Shown: positions 1,880-21,406 of the stretch, piece by piece
Layout: each line of letters opens with the position of its first letter
Numbering within the stretch: position 1 is the stretch's first letter
The notes under the pieces: model-generated
What the model was told of the DNA's origin: nothing
The model's database searches: none
The model's input: the letters and a program-made list of their open reading frames with translations, nothing else
Translations under genes and position numbers: made by a program
Assembly (NCBI GenBank): GCA_022768045.1
Contig: JALEND010000020.1
Location: 1 to 40,712, forward strand
Reading direction: 5' to 3'
From: Mycoplasmatota bacterium
Lineage (GTDB): Bacteria; Bacillota_I; Bacilli_A; RF39; UBA660
Length of the DNA: 40,712 bases

Positions 1880-2551
1880 TTGCAAAATGCTATAATTCCA
1901 GAAAACATAGTAGATGAAAATAAAAATTTAATTTATTCTATTTGTTATAAACATAAAAATTATTGTGATATAGATGATTTATATCAAGCTGGTTTGTTAG
2001 GCCTTATGGATGCATATAAGAACTTTGATCCTAGTAAAAATGTTAAGTTTTCTACTTATGCCTTTAATTATATTTTAGGAGAAATTACTAAGTATATAAG
2101 AGAAAATAATAATATAAAAGTAAGTAAGGATATGTTAAGGTTAGGTAAAAAAATTAATGAGTATATAGATAAGTTTTATGAATTAAAGGGCTATAAACCA
2201 TCTATTAAAGATATTAGTTTAATGCTTAATATAAAAGAATCTAAGGTTATAGAAGCACTTGATTTATGCCTTAAAGTTAAGAGTTTAGATGAGATTATAA
2301 TAAGTGATGGAAAAGACGTAACATTACTTGATGTAACACCAGATAATGATAAATTATCTTGTGATGTTATGCTTGATTTAAAAGATGCTCTTATGATCTT
2401 ATCTGATGAAGAAAGAGACTTTATAATAGATAGATTTTATAATGACTTAACACAAAGTGAGGTTGCAGAAAAACTAGGTGTTAATCAGGTATATGTATCT
2501 AGAATGGAAAAAAGGGTTTTAAAAAAGATGAAAAATAAGATGGTAGCATAA
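1880..2551 (+). CDS. sigF: RNA polymerase sporulation sigma factor, sigma-F/G-like
   Basis: Sigma70 region 2 (DDLYQAGLLGLMDAYKNFDPSKNVKFSTYAFNYILGEI) and region 4 (LSDEERDFIIDRFYNDLTQSEVAEKLGVNQVYVSRMEKRVLKKM). TTG start. Operon position supports SigF. Confidence 0.85.
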   Translation: MQNAIIPENIVDENKNLIYSICYKHKNYCDIDDLYQAGLLGLMDAYKNFDPSKNVKFSTYAFNYILGEITKYIRENNNIKVSKDMLRLGKKINEYIDKFYELKGYKPSIKDISLMLNIKESKVIEALDLCLKVKSLDEIIISDGKDVTLLDVTPDNDKLSCDVMLDLKDALMILSDEERDFIIDRFYNDLTQSEVAEKLGVNQVYVSRMEKRVLKKMKNKMVA

Positions 2552-3069: not shown

Positions 3070-4065
3070 ATGACTATTAAGTTTAATAACATTTATTTAG
3101 GTGAATCATCATCAGTTGCATGTCAAGATGAATATAAGGGGAGTTTTGGAAAACTATATGACATAGTATATGATGATTATTATGCAGGTGAAAAGACTTT
3201 TGAAAGAGCAGAGGTAAAAATGATTAAGGATGTAGTTTTTTTAACTCTTAAAAAAGCTAGTAAGAAAATGGATGATATAGATGTTATAATTGGTGCAGAT
3301 TTATTAAATCAGATAGCAGCTAACTCTTATTCAGCACTTTCTTTTGATAAATCTTTTATAGGTGTTTATAGTGCTTGTGCTTCTTTTTGTGAAGAGTTAA
3401 TTGTTGCATCTTTTATTTTAAAGAATAATAAAATTAATAACGTACTAGTTAATACATCGTCTCATAACATGACCGCAGAAAGACAGTTTAGAAATCCGGT
3501 AGAGTATGGAGCTCCTAAACCTAAGAGATCTACTTATACTGCAACAGGAGCTACATCATTTTTAGTATCAGTTGAAAGATCTAATATAAAAGTGTCTAGT
3601 GCTTGTATTGGAAGTGTTGTTGATATGGGAATAGATGATGCTAATGACATGGGTTCTGTAATGGCACCTGCAGCAGCTAAAACGTTATATGATTATTTAT
3701 CAGATACTAATACAAAACCTAGTGATTATGATCTTATATTAACTGGTGATTTAGGAGTTTATGGTAAAGAGATATTAATTAAGTATATGAAAGAGTTTTA
3801 TAATATAGATGTATCTGAAAAATTAGAGGATGCAGGTAGCATTTTATATGATAGAACTTTACAGAAAAAAGTAAATGCTGGAGCATCAGGACCAGTTACA
3901 ATAGCACTAGTTACAAAGAATTATGTAATTAATAAACTAAGTAATAATGAGTTTAAAAAAGTCCTTTTAATAGCAACAGGAGCGTTAATGAGTCCTACTA
4001 TGAATAATCAAAAACTATCTATTCCATCTATTGCACACTTAGTATGTTTGGAGAATGTATTATGA
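3070..4065 (+). CDS. spoVAD: Stage V sporulation protein AD (thiolase-fold, dipicolinate uptake)
   Basis: GVYSACASFCEELIVAS, NTSSHNMTAERQFRNPVEYGAPKP and LTGDLGVYGKEI SpoVAD signatures. Confidence 0.93.
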   Translation: MTIKFNNIYLGESSSVACQDEYKGSFGKLYDIVYDDYYAGEKTFERAEVKMIKDVVFLTLKKASKKMDDIDVIIGADLLNQIAANSYSALSFDKSFIGVYSACASFCEELIVASFILKNNKINNVLVNTSSHNMTAERQFRNPVEYGAPKPKRSTYTATGATSFLVSVERSNIKVSSACIGSVVDMGIDDANDMGSVMAPAAAKTLYDYLSDTNTKPSDYDLILTGDLGVYGKEILIKYMKEFYNIDVSEKLEDAGSILYDRTLQKKVNAGASGPVTIALVTKNYVINKLSNNEFKKVLLIATGALMSPTMNNQKLSIPSIAHLVCLENVL

Positions 4066-13872: not shown

Positions 13873-13949
13873 GTTATTTAGGTATTTTAATTTATTTATA
13901 ATTGTGGTAAAATAATTTTATAGTAAAAGTAGGACGAAAGGGTGATTTG

Positions 13950-14348
13950 ATGGCTTTTAGTTTAAAGAAATTATTAAACGGTGGAGATATTTCTAGTGAT
14001 GATGAATATTATACTTTAAGTGTGGAAGAAGCAAGTAAGGAAGAGGCTGGAGAAGGTTCAAAGATGATACTTCTTGAACCTAGAGCATATTCTGAATCAC
14101 AACAAATAGCAGACTATTTAAAGAAGAGAAACACAGTAGTTGTAAATTTAAAAAGAGTTACCCCAGATCAAGGAAAAAGAATAATTGATTTTGTAAGTGG
14201 TTGTTTATATGCTATAGGTGGAACTATGCAAAAGCTAGGTGATGGTATATTCTTATGTGCCCCTAAAAACATTAATGTTCAAGGTAAAATGACTGAAGAT
14301 GATACTCAATCTAGAAGAAAAACTAAGAATATTTCAGAGGATTTTTAA
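13950..14348 (+). CDS. sepF: Cell division protein SepF
   Basis: EPRAYSESQQIADYLKKRNTVVVNLKRVTPDQGKRIIDFVSGCLYAIGGTMQKLGDGIFLCAP. Confidence 0.93.
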   Translation: MAFSLKKLLNGGDISSDDEYYTLSVEEASKEEAGEGSKMILLEPRAYSESQQIADYLKKRNTVVVNLKRVTPDQGKRIIDFVSGCLYAIGGTMQKLGDGIFLCAPKNINVQGKMTEDDTQSRRKTKNISEDF

Positions 14349-14447: not shown

Positions 14448-15368
14448 ATGTATAAGAAGTTAAGTAAAAACGCAACAATAGGGGTTGTTGGTGTTTCTAA
14501 TAGTATTAAAAGAGAAAACAAGGAAAGTATTTTTTTAAAAGCTAAAAAGTTATTTGAAGATCACGGATACAAGCTAAAATTTAGTGATAATGTTTTCATA
14601 GACTATTATGGAATGGCAGGAAGTGCAAAACAAAAGGCAGAAGAATTAAATAATATGTTTAAAGATCCTAGTATAGATTTAATAATGTGCTTAGATGGAG
14701 GAGATTCTTGTAATACAATAATTGATTATTTAGATTATTAATTAATTAAGAATAATCCTAAACCAATTGTAGGATATAGTGACGTAACTGTTTTATTAGA
14801 AACAATAAATAAAATGACAGGAATAATTACGTTTCATGGACCAGCATTTTTAAGTTTTGGAGAAGATTATGGAGAAAAGTGCATGGAAAACTTTGTAAAT
14901 ACATTTGAAAAGGGTTTATTTGATGACTTTTTAAACAGTAATATAAAAGAAGTAAGAAAGGGAAATTCTAAAGGTAAACTAATTGGTACTAACTTAGAGT
15001 GTTCAATATATATAATAGGTACTAAGTATTTTCCTGATGTAAACAATAACATATTATTAGTAGAAAGATATATTACAACACCTAGTGAAACTTATAATCA
15101 TTTTTATCAATTAAAGCAAAAGGGTATTTTAGATAAAATAAGTGGTTTATTAATAGGTTATAATTATTCTTTTGAATCAGAAAAAAGTGGCAGAAAAACA
15201 GATATTAAGATGGAGGATATTGCAAAAGAAGTATCTAAAGATTATGATTTTCCTATATATAAGTGTTAAACTTTTGGTCATGAAATGGCAAACGTTGTAA
15301 TTCCGGTAGGAGCTACTGCAGAGATAATTGATAATAAGTTAAAAATAACAGAAAAAATATTCTTTTAA
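14448..15368 (+). pseudogene. LD-carboxypeptidase (LdcA/MccF, S66) frame interrupted by two in-frame TAA codons
   Basis: One uninterrupted frame apart from TAA at 14739-14741 and 15267-15269: ...MCLDGGDSCNTIIDYLDY*LIKNNPKPIVGYSDVTVLLE...PIYKC*TFGHEMANVVIPVGATAEI. S66 family motifs occur on all sides of the stops. Confidence 0.8.
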
Positions 15369-15409
15369 TATTGCAAAAAGTAATATTTATGATAAAATTA
15401 TAAGTATAA

Positions 15410-15637
15410 ATCAATTGATGAAGACGTTATAATGTGAAATTAAAAGAGAGTCTACTAGTTGGTGAGAGGTAGGTTAAGGAAGCATTATAAAAATCACTTC
15501 TGATGAGATTATTTGAAAAAAGTAGAATATTCCGCAAGCTTGCGTTAAAAGTATGAGGTGCACACAATAATTAGTGTGAATTAAGGTGGTCTCGCGGTTA
15601 TTAATCGTCCTTTACATAAAGGATGATTTTTTTATTT
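15410..15637 (+). promoter_or_regulatory. T-box leader (predicted Ile specifier) upstream of ileS
   Basis: T-box-like aaggtggtctcgcggtt at about 15583-15599; candidate AUC specifier at 15493-15495 within aaaATCActtctga; terminator atcgtccttt-acat-aaaggatgattttttt. Confidence 0.85.
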
Positions 15638-15653: not shown

Positions 15654-18600
15654 ATGAGTAAATTATTTGAAGAATTATCAAAAGAAGATGCAAATAAAGT
15701 AGAGAAAAGTTTGTTAAAAAAATGGAAAGACATGGATTTATTACAAAAGACAATTGATAACAGAAAAGAAAGTTTTGTATTTTATGATGGACCAATATAT
15801 GCAAATGCAAAGCCAGGTATTCATCATGTGTTTGCAAAAACAATTAAAGATGCCTTTTGTAAGTATAAAACAATGAAAGGTTATAGAGTAGATAGAAAAA
15901 TAGGTCTTGATTGTAATGGACTTCCTATTGAGTATAACGTAGAGAAAAAATTAGGTATTAATGGTAAAAAAGACATTGAAGAAATGGGTATTGATAAATT
16001 TGTTAATGAGTGTAAAAAAAATACTGCCTTAAACATTGATGAGGTAAGAAAAGTAACTGATATGATGGGACAATTTATTGATCAAGAACATCCATATATT
16101 ACATGTGAAAATGATTATCATGAAACAGAGTGGTATTTATTTAAGGAAATGCATAAAAAAGGTGCTATTTATCATAGTAATAAGATTCTTCCATATTGTC
16201 CAAGATGTGGTACTGAACTTGCTAAGTTTGAAGTTGACCAAGGATATCAATTAGATCCTGTTAATACTGTAATTGTTCCCTTTAAATTAGTAGATAAAGA
16301 TGAGTACTTACTTGTATGGACTACAACTCCATGGACTTTACTTGATAATGTTGCAGCTTGTGTTAATCCTGATTATGAATATATAAAAGCAGAGTCTATG
16401 GGATATAAGTTTATCTTATGTAAAGATTTAGCTAACAAAGTATTAGGTGATGAGTATAAAACTTTAGAAACTTATAAAGGTACTGACTTAGTAGGTCTTA
16501 AGTATGAACAATTAATGCCTTTTGCAAGTGTAGAAGGTGGTAAGTCATTTGAGGTAATAGCAGATAATTATGTTACTTCAGAAGATGGTACTGGTATAGT
16601 ACATATTGCACCTGCTTATGGTGAAGATGATAACAGAGTATGTCGTGAAAATGGTATTGGTTGGACACAAAGTGTTGATTTAGCTGGTAAATATACTATT
16701 GGTCCATGGAAGGGTACTTTAGTAACTGATAAAGACTTAGAAATAACTATTATAAAATGGTTAAAAGAAAATGATAAATTATTTAAGAAAATAAAAATAG
16801 AACACGATTATCCTCACTGCTGGAGATGTAAGAGTCCATTAATATACTTTGCAAAACCAGCTTGGTATGTTAAAACAACTGAGTATAAAGATAAGATAAT
16901 AGAAGAAAATAATAAAATTAATTGGTATCCAGATTATGTAGGTACAAAAAGATTTGGTAACTGGCTTGATAACATGGTAGACTGGGGTATTTCAAGAAAT
17001 AGATACTGGGGATGCCCATTACCATTTTGGGTATGTGATAGCTGCGGAGAATTTGATGTAATAGGTTCACGTGATGAATTAATTAAAAGAGCAGATCAAG
17101 ATTTAAAATATGAGGAAATAGATTTACATAGACCATATGTTGATAATATTACAATGAAATGTTCTTGCGGTGGAGTTATGCATAGAGTAAAAGACGTAGC
17201 AGATGTTTGGTTTGATTCTGGAGCTATGCCTTATGCACAATGTCATTATCCATTTGAAAATAAAGACTGGTTTGATAAACACTTTCCAGCTGATTTTATT
17301 GCAGAGGGTATTGATCAAACTCGTGGATGGTTTTATGTATTATTATGCATATCAACAATAATATCTGGTAAATCATCATTTAAAAATGTTGTTGTAAATG
17401 ATATGATGCTTGATGCTCATGGTAAGAAAATGAGTAAGTCAACTGGTAACATAATTGATCCAATAGAAATTATGACTAAGTATGGAGCAGACCCAGTTAG
17501 ATGGTATATGCTTTATACATCACCTGTTTGGACTCCATTAAAATTTGATGAAAATGGTCTTAAAGAAGTTCATTCTAAGTTCTTCTCAACATTAAAAAAC
17601 ACTTATTCTTTCTTTGCGTTATATGCAAATACTGATAATGTAGATCCAAGAAGTTTTGAAGTTCCATACGAAAAAAGAGAAGAAATAGATAAATGGTTAC
17701 TTTCTAAATATAATAAATTATTAGAATATGTTACAGAATCTTATGATGAGTATGATTTAAATAAAGTAGTAAAAGCTATTACAAACTTTGTATCTGAAGA
17801 CTTATCTAACTGGTATATCAGAAGAAATAGACGTAGATTCTGGGGTAGTTCTTTAGACATAAGTAAAAAAGCTGTATATAAAACAACTTATGAAGTATTA
17901 GTTGGTTTATGTGAGATGATCGCTCCAATTGCACCTTATATATCAGATGAAATATATACTAAGTTAACTGGTGATTTATCAGTACATTTAAGTGATTTTC
18001 CAAAGACAAATAAATCATTAATAAATGAAGAAATTGAAGAAAAAATGGACTTAGTAAGAGATTTAATTTCACTTGGTAGAAATGCAAGAGAAGAAGTTAA
18101 AATAAAGGTTAGACAACCAATTAGTGAAGTATTAGTAGATGGTAAAAATAAAAACATAATTGGTGATTTAGTAGATTTAATAAAAGAAGAGTTAAATGTA
18201 AAAAAAGTAACTTACATAGATGATTTATCAGTTTACATGAACTTTGAAGTTAAACCAAACTTTAAAGTAGTTGGTAAGGTATTTGGACCTAAGATAAAAT
18301 CATATCAAAAAGAACTTTCTTCTTTAACTGATGAAGAAATAAGTAAATTACAAAATAATGAAAGTATTAAAATGACTATAGAGGGTGAAGAATTTAATAT
18401 AACACCTGATATGGTAGATATTAGAGTTTCTGCAAAAGAAGGATATGATGCTAAAAAAGAAAATAATAACTTTATCATATTAAATACTAACTTAACAGAT
18501 GAGTTAATAGGTGAAGGTATAGCAAGAGAACTTATATCTAAAGTTCAAAACTTAAGAAAACAAAAGGACTTTGATGTAGCAGATAGAATTAAGTTATATT

Positions 18601-18755
18601 ATAGTTCTAATGAAAAATTTGACTTAGTTATAAGAGATTTTGAAGAAATGATTAAAAAAGAAACACTAAGCTTAGAAATAATAAAGAAAAATGATTTAAC
18701 AGAAGAATTTGATCTTAATGGAATAAATGTTAAATTAGATGTAGAAAAGGCTTAA
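15654..18755 (+). CDS. ileS: Isoleucyl-tRNA synthetase, eukaryote-like type (IleRS2), altered HIGH motif GIHH
   Basis: YDGPIYANAKPGIHHVFAKTIKDAFCKYKTMKGYRVDRKIGLDCNGLPIEYNVEKKLGI, CWRCKSPL, WGISRNRYWGCPLPFW, GKKMSKSTGNIIDP. Length and C-terminal layout fit type 2. Confidence 0.95.
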   Translation: MSKLFEELSKEDANKVEKSLLKKWKDMDLLQKTIDNRKESFVFYDGPIYANAKPGIHHVFAKTIKDAFCKYKTMKGYRVDRKIGLDCNGLPIEYNVEKKLGINGKKDIEEMGIDKFVNECKKNTALNIDEVRKVTDMMGQFIDQEHPYITCENDYHETEWYLFKEMHKKGAIYHSNKILPYCPRCGTELAKFEVDQGYQLDPVNTVIVPFKLVDKDEYLLVWTTTPWTLLDNVAACVNPDYEYIKAESMGYKFILCKDLANKVLGDEYKTLETYKGTDLVGLKYEQLMPFASVEGGKSFEVIADNYVTSEDGTGIVHIAPAYGEDDNRVCRENGIGWTQSVDLAGKYTIGPWKGTLVTDKDLEITIIKWLKENDKLFKKIKIEHDYPHCWRCKSPLIYFAKPAWYVKTTEYKDKIIEENNKINWYPDYVGTKRFGNWLDNMVDWGISRNRYWGCPLPFWVCDSCGEFDVIGSRDELIKRADQDLKYEEIDLHRPYVDNITMKCSCGGVMHRVKDVADVWFDSGAMPYAQCHYPFENKDWFDKHFPADFIAEGIDQTRGWFYVLLCISTIISGKSSFKNVVVNDMMLDAHGKKMSKSTGNIIDPIEIMTKYGADPVRWYMLYTSPVWTPLKFDENGLKEVHSKFFSTLKNTYSFFALYANTDNVDPRSFEVPYEKREEIDKWLLSKYNKLLEYVTESYDEYDLNKVVKAITNFVSEDLSNWYIRRNRRRFWGSSLDISKKAVYKTTYEVLVGLCEMIAPIAPYISDEIYTKLTGDLSVHLSDFPKTNKSLINEEIEEKMDLVRDLISLGRNAREEVKIKVRQPISEVLVDGKNKNIIGDLVDLIKEELNVKKVTYIDDLSVYMNFEVKPNFKVVGKVFGPKIKSYQKELSSLTDEEISKLQNNESIKMTIEGEEFNITPDMVDIRVSAKEGYDAKKENNNFIILNTNLTDELIGEGIARELISKVQNLRKQKDFDVADRIKLYYSSNEKFDLVIRDFEEMIKKETLSLEIIKKNDLTEEFDLNGINVKLDVEKA

Positions 18756-20675: not shown

Positions 20676-20712
20676 ATAAAAAAAAGATAATTGTTTTACA
20701 ATTAATCTTTTT
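20676..20712. terminator. Terminator of the minus-strand sigK gene, possibly bidirectional
   Basis: aaaaaaaagataattgttttacaattaatctttttta inverted repeat with flanking A and T tracts. Confidence 0.6.
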
Positions 20713-21406
20713 TATTTCTTATAAATTCTCTTAGTATCTTTGTTAAAGCTCTTTTTTCAATTCTAGATACATAGCTTCTTGAAATGTTAAATTCCTTTGC
20801 AATTTCTTTTTGAGTGTATATTTTTGTATTATATAAACCATATCTTTTAATTATAATTTGTTTTTCTCTTTCAGTTAATATATTTACGTATTCATATAAT
20901 AACAAGACTTTATCTTTTAAATCTATATCACTTATATAATCAGGATCTGGTGTTTTTAAAATATCCATTATAGATATTTCATTTCCTTCTTTATCAAATC
21001 CAACAGATTCATTTATACTTATGTTTTTAGCGTTTTTCTTATCACTTCTAAAATGCATTAATATTTCATTTTCAATACATCTTGCAGCATACGTAGTTAA
21101 TTTAGCTCCATTTTTATCTGAGAATGTATCAATTGCTTTTATAAGTCCAATGGTACCTATACTAATTAAATCATCTATGTCTACTTTTTTAGAATCATAC
21201 TTTTTAACTATGTGTGCAACTAATCTTAAGTTATGTTCTATAAGTTTGTTTCTAGCTTCTTTCTCATTGTTTTTCATCTTTATTACTAATTTATTTTCCT
21301 CTTCTTTTGAAATTGGATCTGGAAATGTTTTATTTCCATAAGATGCACAACCAATTAACGCACCTTTTATTATTTCACTTATAATATTAATAAACAAAAT
21401 CATCAC
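20702..21406 (-). CDS. sigK: RNA polymerase sporulation sigma factor SigK, uninterrupted and with a pro-sequence
   Basis: ARNKLIEHNLRLVAHIVKKYD, DDLISIGTIGLIKAIDTFSDKNGAKLTTYAARCIENEILMHFRSDKK, DKEGNEISIMDIL, FNISRSYVSRIEKRALTKI. The N-terminal hydrophobic leader matches a pro-sigma-K sequence. Exact start uncertain. Confidence 0.93.
   Translation of the reverse strand: MMILFINIISEIIKGALIGCASYGNKTFPDPISKEEENKLVIKMKNNEKEARNKLIEHNLRLVAHIVKKYDSKKVDIDDLISIGTIGLIKAIDTFSDKNGAKLTTYAARCIENEILMHFRSDKKNAKNISINESVGFDKEGNEISIMDILKTPDPDYISDIDLKDKVLLLYEYVNILTEREKQIIIKRYGLYNTKIYTQKEIAKEFNISRSYVSRIEKRALTKILREFIRNKKD

What the first reader, a model, noticed from the sequence alone, without database searches (positions are those of the whole stretch)
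15801..15840. IleRS with a swapped HIGH signature: GIHH instead of HXGH
The class I signature (for example HYGH in type 2 IleRS) aligns here with ANAKPGIHHVFAKTIKD; codons ggt att cat cat at 15816-15827 give G-I-H-H. KMSKS is intact. A GXHH variant in type 2 IleRS has been described as conferring mupirocin hyper-resistance. This enzyme therefore predicts intrinsic strong mupirocin resistance and altered ATP-site geometry.
Basis: partly seen in the sequence, partly recalled or inferred. Interest (0 to 1): 0.72.

Follow-up and report, generated by a model that had tools for sequence, protein, structure and literature searches.

The report
Mosaic IleRS with swapped HIGH motif
This uncultured gut bacterium's only detected isoleucine-tRNA enzyme carries a reversed form of a near-universal active-site motif that is already known to make such enzymes almost immune to mupirocin, and its whole catalytic core appears to have been spliced in from another genus, a kind of core swapping that seems common across its bacterial family.

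Summary
ileS (15654-18755, + strand, 1033 aa) reads ANAKPGIHHVFAKTIKD at the class I signature, with GIHH encoded at 15816-15827 and KMSKS at 17427-17441. It is a type 2 IleRS: the best solved structures by sequence and by fold are Priestia megaterium IleRS2, among them its engineered GVHH mutant. It is the only IleRS found in the host genome and sits behind an isoleucine T-box. The enzyme is therefore probably hyper-resistant, but untested here. New here: (1) GXHH IleRS2 is the sole IleRS in about 113 of 136 sampled genomes of its family, often in the sepF-divIVA-T-box slot that IleRS1 fills in relatives. (2) This gene is a mosaic: start and anticodon-binding tail are native to the genus, but about 15,770-17,520 (HIGH through KMSKS) comes from another genus (p 4e-39; both half-trees conflict with AU rejection). 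(3) Across 89 family members, head and tail relationships are nearly uncorrelated (0.18, against 0.77-0.92 in other IleRS2 groups), with the break at residues 600-660. (4) Many relatives also carry KMHKS, seen only with GXHH.

The parts
15406..15615 (+). T-box leader (RF00230) controlling ileS; isoleucine specifier codon AUC at 15493-15495, tRNA-end-pairing bulge UGGU near 15588
   Evidence: Rfam gathering hit, 104.2 bits; specifier read from the alignment to the model (inference); sequence nearer own genus than donor genera (83 vs 64% best at 15420-15539)
15654..18755 (+). ileS, type 2 isoleucyl-tRNA synthetase, 1033 aa, sole IleRS found in the genome
15816..15827 (+). swapped class I signature GIHH (residues 55-58) in place of HXGH
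17427..17441 (+). KMSKS second signature (residues 592-596), canonical here
15771..17527 (+). foreign catalytic-core segment (about residues 40-625, HIGH through KMSKS), closest to genera g54/g134/g64 rather than the host's genus
   Evidence: two-breakpoint likelihood: 262/301 donor-type sites inside vs 50/176 outside, Fisher p 4e-39; N-half tree 100/100, own-genus grouping rejected p-AU 0.0002
17528..18755 (+). native tail: anticodon-binding and C-terminal domains (first long helix 633-660 in the model)
   Evidence: groups with own genus 97/99, donor grouping rejected p-AU 0.0014; model
13947..14348 (+). sepF, marks the sepF-(divIVA)-T-box-ileS slot
   Evidence: 88.6% identical to SepF of same-genus G003; slot shared with IleRS1 relatives

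Best explanation
This is the host's only detected, housekeeping type 2 IleRS, in which the first and third residues of the HIGH motif are exchanged (GIHH). The histidine at position 3 provides the contact normally made by the first histidine, so activation still works. The same histidine should clash with mupirocin, making the enzyme and probably the cell intrinsically hyper-resistant. An AUC-specifier T-box matches expression to uncharged tRNA-Ile. The gene came to sit in the ancestral sepF-divIVA-T-box-ileS slot of this family by replacing IleRS1, and the window copy has since had its catalytic core, from just before HIGH to just after KMSKS, replaced by homologous recombination with the core of another genus, keeping its native 5' end and anticodon-binding tail. 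Shown by sequence: motif, type, no second IleRS found, T-box, slot, mosaic structure. Inferred: mupirocin Ki, catalytic roles, direction of the recombination, selective cause.
For: Motif and type. Fold: AlphaFold2 model pLDDT 87; best PDB matches are four P. megaterium IleRS2 entries incl. the hyper-resistant mutant (TM 0.82-0.83), IleRS1 lower (0.65-0.67). Mechanism and hyper-resistance of G/AXHH IleRS2: PMC10485003. Sole IleRS: 7 hits in the genome resolve to this gene plus Val-, Leu- and MetRS; no sampled relative has IleRS1 alongside IleRS2. Slot: SepF upstream in 45 main-type loci, 15 IleRS1-type loci and 2 minor-clade loci. Lineage: one GXHH clade with Acetoanaerobium noterae (GIHH, 53%) as nearest outgroup. 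Mosaic: ObgE 80-86% to own genus vs 57-60% to G073/G153/G083, but IleRS head nearest those three; half-trees and AU tests; breakpoints. Family-wide decoupling; KMSKS/KMHKS changes 7 on the head tree vs 22 on the tail tree.
Against: No biochemistry or growth data exist for this host, which is an uncultured MAG. The genome is 90.8% complete, so a second IleRS cannot be strictly excluded. The published 200-800-fold effects were measured in other IleRS2s, at most about 40% identical where compared here. The ValRS control for head/tail decoupling is noisy: its two tail halves correlate only 0.05-0.27. SepF/DivIVA markers correlate only weakly with the tail (0.29-0.35), so the tail is not shown to be purely vertical.
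Confidence: 0.83

Rival explanations
1. The whole ileS gene, not just its core, was transferred from another genus, and the tail resemblance to the host genus is a rate effect.
For: The whole-gene tree places the window with L150/L151/L152, and the gene is 76% identical to L150 overall.
Against: Tail tree puts the window inside its own genus (97/99) and rejects the donor grouping (p-AU 0.0014). Mean DNA identity favours the donors over the host genus before about 17.5 kb and the host genus over the donors after it. The T-box and first 40 codons also look native.
Confidence: 0.06
2. The mosaic is a metagenome assembly chimera.
For: The source is a fragmented MAG (80 contigs); an interrupted leuS and S66 gene show that the consensus may hold errors.
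Against: The two parental types differ by about a quarter or more in DNA, too far apart for ordinary assembly joins. Both ends of the insert return to native-type sequence. The same head/tail break at residues 600-660 appears across 89 family members from many separate genomes.
Confidence: 0.05
3. GXHH is retained by descent and has nothing to do with mupirocin in this habitat; the actual pressure is another IleRS inhibitor or none.
For: The swap is fixed through the whole clade and shared with the outgroup Acetoanaerobium, so it predates this lineage. Nothing seen here links rumen or gut hosts to mupirocin producers.
Against: Does not contradict hyper-resistance as a property; in all published IleRS2 tests the swap raises Ki.
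Confidence: 0.5
4. The upstream S66 (MccF-like) gene and ileS form an antibiotic-resistance operon.
For: An S66 peptidase gene lies directly upstream of the T-box.
Against: That gene is interrupted by two TAA codons and lies outside the T-box; the similar-sized gene between T-box and ileS in relatives is a Na/Ca exchanger, which also occurs before IleRS1 genes.
Confidence: 0.02

Closest known systems
G/AXHH (non-canonical signature) IleRS2, e.g. Deinococcus radiodurans ALHH and Streptomyces griseus IleRS2 (PMC10485003)
   Same: Type 2 IleRS, first and third signature residues exchanged, bacterial housekeeping enzyme
   Different: Different branch (Bacilli family, nearest outgroup found is clostridial); core exchanged by recombination; relatives also alter KMSKS to KMHKS
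Priestia megaterium IleRS2 and its GVHH mutant (PDB 8c8v, 8c8w)
   Same: Closest solved structures by sequence and fold
   Different: Natural enzyme has canonical HVGH and is a second IleRS beside IleRS1; about 40% identity
MupA/MupB plasmid IleRS2
   Same: Type 2 IleRS; MupA plasmid copies 41.5% identical
   Different: MupA copy examined has canonical HTGH (L252); plasmid-borne accessory gene, whereas this one is chromosomal and sole; scores far below the MupA/MupB model cut-offs (887/881 vs 1900)
Chimeric GluRS2 (PMC3927822)
   Same: Catalytic and anticodon-binding domains with different histories
   Different: That is a second GluRS with a separate specificity; here the sole IleRS exchanges cores between close relatives, apparently repeatedly

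Membership tests
Type 2 isoleucyl-tRNA synthetase (IleRS2) | closer to IleRS2 than IleRS1 in sequence and tree | tested here: met
   Best structures are IleRS2 (911 vs 372 bits for P. megaterium IleRS1); separated from IleRS1 by a 100% branch
Type 2 isoleucyl-tRNA synthetase (IleRS2) | IleRS2-type fold including C-terminal tRNA-binding region | tested here: met
   Model TM 0.82-0.83 over about 1040 columns to IleRS2, 0.65-0.67 to IleRS1
Mupirocin hyper-resistant G/AXHH IleRS2 | Gly or Ala at position 1 and His at position 3 of the signature | tested here: met
   GIHH, residues 55-58
Mupirocin hyper-resistant G/AXHH IleRS2 | mupirocin Ki in the high-micromolar to millimolar range with retained activity | not testable with these tools
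   Needs purified enzyme; inferred from PMC10485003
Housekeeping (sole) IleRS | no second IleRS in the genome | tested here: met
   Only Val-, Leu- and MetRS besides; genome 90.8% complete
Housekeeping (sole) IleRS | isoleucine T-box control | tested here: met
   RF00230 at 15406-15615; AUC specifier read from the alignment
MupA/MupB | above curated NCBIfam cut-off | tested here: not met
   887 and 881 bits vs 1900
Chimeric aminoacyl-tRNA synthetase (GluRS2-like) | catalytic and anticodon-binding domains of different ancestry | tested here: met
   Conflicting half-trees with AU rejections

The most novel reading that the evidence does not exclude
In this large family of reduced-genome gut Bacilli the sole IleRS is modular in nature: the swapped-signature catalytic core (HIGH to KMSKS) is exchanged between genera as a cassette with boundaries near residue 40 and at the start of the anticodon-binding domain, while tails evolve separately. 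Heads therefore circulate like resistance alleles, some with a second signature change (KMHKS) that is tolerated only once HIGH is swapped.
Probability: 0.5. Interest if true: 0.68.

Novelty: new variant of a known kind. Interest (0 to 1): 0.5.

Why it matters
If the known GXHH effect carries over, most of a large family of so far little-cultured gut and rumen Bacilli is intrinsically resistant to mupirocin at the target, which predicts that mupirocin could be used to enrich them. The family is also a natural experiment in active-site evolution: one essential enzyme shows a swapped HIGH motif, recurrent S/H changes in KMSKS confined to the swapped background, and catalytic cores that move between genera while the tRNA-reading tail stays. 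That makes the interdependence of core, tail and tRNA directly testable with natural chimeras.

Tried and rejected
S66/MccF plus ileS resistance operon: rejected, because the 315-aa gene between T-box and ileS in relatives is a Na/Ca exchanger and the S66 gene in the window is broken. Alternative genetic code to explain in-frame stops: the metS TAG proved to be the stop before the start codon, leaving one TAG in leuS and two TAA in the S66 gene, so MAG error or pseudogene is likelier. Plasmid origin: no plasmid record closer than the A. noterae record at 53%, which at 2.63 Mb looks like a chromosome. Papers naming KMHKS with a tRNA synthetase: none in the held library. The test 'window plus genus without G015' in the tail tree is rejected (p 0.027) only because G015 nests inside that clade; with G015 the clade is in the best tree at 97/99. 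Genomes whose ValRS-like frame is the shorter (about 807-826 aa) variant were left out of the ValRS control.

Full report
WHAT IS THERE. The window carries ileS at 15654-18755 (+), an unbroken 1033-codon frame. Bases 15816-15827 read ggt att cat cat, giving G-I-H-H where class I synthetases have H-X-G-H; the alignment to P. megaterium IleRS2 leaves no doubt about register. KMSKS is at 17427-17441. A T-box leader lies at 15406-15615 (104 bits, gathering 93) with AUC in the specifier position. Upstream is sepF (13947-14348); between it and the T-box lies an S66 peptidase gene broken by two TAA codons.

WHAT IT IS. The protein passes TIGR00392 ileS and is type 2: 911 bits to P. megaterium IleRS2 against 372 to its IleRS1; trees separate it from IleRS1 on a 100% branch. 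An AlphaFold2 model (pLDDT 87) finds four P. megaterium IleRS2 entries first (TM 0.82-0.83), among them the engineered GVHH hyper-resistant mutant, with IleRS1 at 0.65-0.67. The host genome (1.07 Mb MAG, 90.8% complete) yields no other IleRS, only Val-, Leu- and MetRS.

WHAT IS KNOWN. PMC10485003 described G/AXHH in 86 of 379 surveyed IleRSs, all IleRS2. ALHH D. radiodurans IleRS2 has Ki 6.6 mM, 8.1 uM when made HVGH; GVHH raises Ki in T. thermophilus and P. megaterium IleRS2 from 0.20 to 35 and 1.08 to 460 uM; the third His takes the position of the first and would clash with mupirocin; IleRS1 does not tolerate the swap.

HOW WIDESPREAD. Of 145 genomes sampled across the window's family (nearly all different genera), 136 have a match; by identity about 113 carry this IleRS2, 20 an IleRS1, 3 only a third type. 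No genome has IleRS1 beside IleRS2. All 89 distinct full-length members examined are GXHH (GIHH 44, GLHH 28, GVHH 17). IleRS2s of other families in the class are HXGH, apart from one short match of the third type with GMHH. The nearest non-family sequence found is Acetoanaerobium noterae (Clostridia), 53%, GIHH. All three IleRS types occur in the same sepF-divIVA-ileS slot, often with a T-box, in different members of the family, so the replacement of one IleRS by another seems to have happened in place. The host family is probably the RF39/UBA660 group; that name is from general knowledge and record titles (Erysipelotrichaceae, Bacilli, Tenericutes), not a test.

THE WINDOW GENE IS A MOSAIC. 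ObgE from the same window is 80-86% identical to genomes of the host genus and 57-60% to G073, G153 and G083; SepF is 88.6% identical to same-genus G003. Yet residues about 100-600 of IleRS are 81-90% identical to G073 and G153 and 50-66% to typical members of the host genus, while beyond residue 600 this reverses. A two-breakpoint fit on DNA sites that separate the two groups puts the foreign stretch at about 15,771-17,527: 262 of 301 sites donor-type inside, 50 of 176 outside (p 4e-39). The N-half tree joins the window to the donor genera (100/100) and rejects its own genus (p-AU 0.0002); the C-half tree joins it to its own genus (97/99) and rejects the donors (p-AU 0.0014). The T-box and first 40 codons are nearer the host genus. 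The foreign stretch thus begins just before HIGH and ends shortly after KMSKS, before the first long helix of the anticodon-binding domain (633-660 in the model). Same-genus G015 also has a non-genus head, from a different group.

THE SAME PATTERN IN THE FAMILY. Over 89 members, pairwise identities of the two halves of the head correlate at 0.86 and of the tail at 0.65, but head with tail only at 0.18. In actinobacterial IleRS2s the head-tail figure is 0.77-0.88, in other Bacilli IleRS2s 0.92, in IleRS1 of this family 0.40 with noisy tails. A sliding scan shows the change of allegiance at residues 600-660, with a weaker one before residue 60. ValRS in the same genomes gives 0.45-0.47 where IleRS2 gives -0.28 to -0.02, though the ValRS tail is noisy. 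Repeated exchange of catalytic cores is the simplest reading. Caveat: pairwise correlations are not independent observations, and no proteome-wide species tree was built.

SECOND SIGNATURE. 35 of 89 members have KMHKS in place of KMSKS; none of the HXGH enzymes examined do. The S/H state needs 7 changes on the head tree and 22 on the tail tree, so it travels with the head. If changes fell evenly along branches, all 8 of the whole-gene tree falling in the GXHH clade would have probability 0.004; a rough figure. The window's KMSKS arrived with the foreign core; nearly all other members of its genus that were checked have KMHKS.

VERDICT. The finding is real and its interpretation is right, but the principle is published. 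The new content is the family-wide fixation with in-place replacement, the mosaic core in this gene and apparently across the family, and the KMHKS association. Mupirocin resistance of this enzyme remains a prediction.

Noticed in passing
window 14448-15368 (+): S66 LD-carboxypeptidase/MccF-like gene interrupted by in-frame TAA at 14739-14741 and 15267-15269, between sepF and the T-box; pseudogene or consensus error.
   Followed up: partly
L144 3456-3458 (G000:C73, leuS): One in-frame TAG in LeuRS at a position that looks like a conserved Tyr (TTDPE*YKWTQW); probably a MAG error, but an essential gene.
   Followed up: partly
L214, L244 (G110, G393): A third IleRS type in the family (34% identity, KFSKS/KFSKT) has KIHH, with Lys at the first signature position, beyond the G/A reported; siblings have GIHH, GMHH or HVGH.
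   Followed up: partly
L226 (G124) and L024: IleRS1 with HIGT and an IleRS2 with HHGT: the fourth signature His is replaced by Thr; may be real or a sequence error.
   Followed up: no
L135, L136, L139, L146, L148, L190, L220 and others: A Na/Ca exchanger gene often sits directly before ileS, downstream of the T-box where one was seen; found before both IleRS1 (2) and IleRS2 (17) genes, suggesting co-control by uncharged tRNA-Ile.
   Followed up: partly
G005:C6:12437-17589 and G013:C13:15586-20763: Two adjacent extra ValRS-like class I synthetase frames (about 807-810 and 833-835 aa) beside a normal ValRS; other genera (G024, G026, G031, G027) carry a frame of about 807-826 aa.
   Followed up: no
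G134:C15 and G134:C63: One genome has both a GXHH-lineage IleRS2 fragment and the third-type IleRS (GIHH/KFSKS); co-residence or contamination (listed 4%).
   Followed up: no
window 1880-2551, 3070-4065, 20702-21406: Sporulation genes (SigF/SigG-like sigma, SpoVAD-like, SigK) in a genome of about 1.1 Mb.
   Followed up: no
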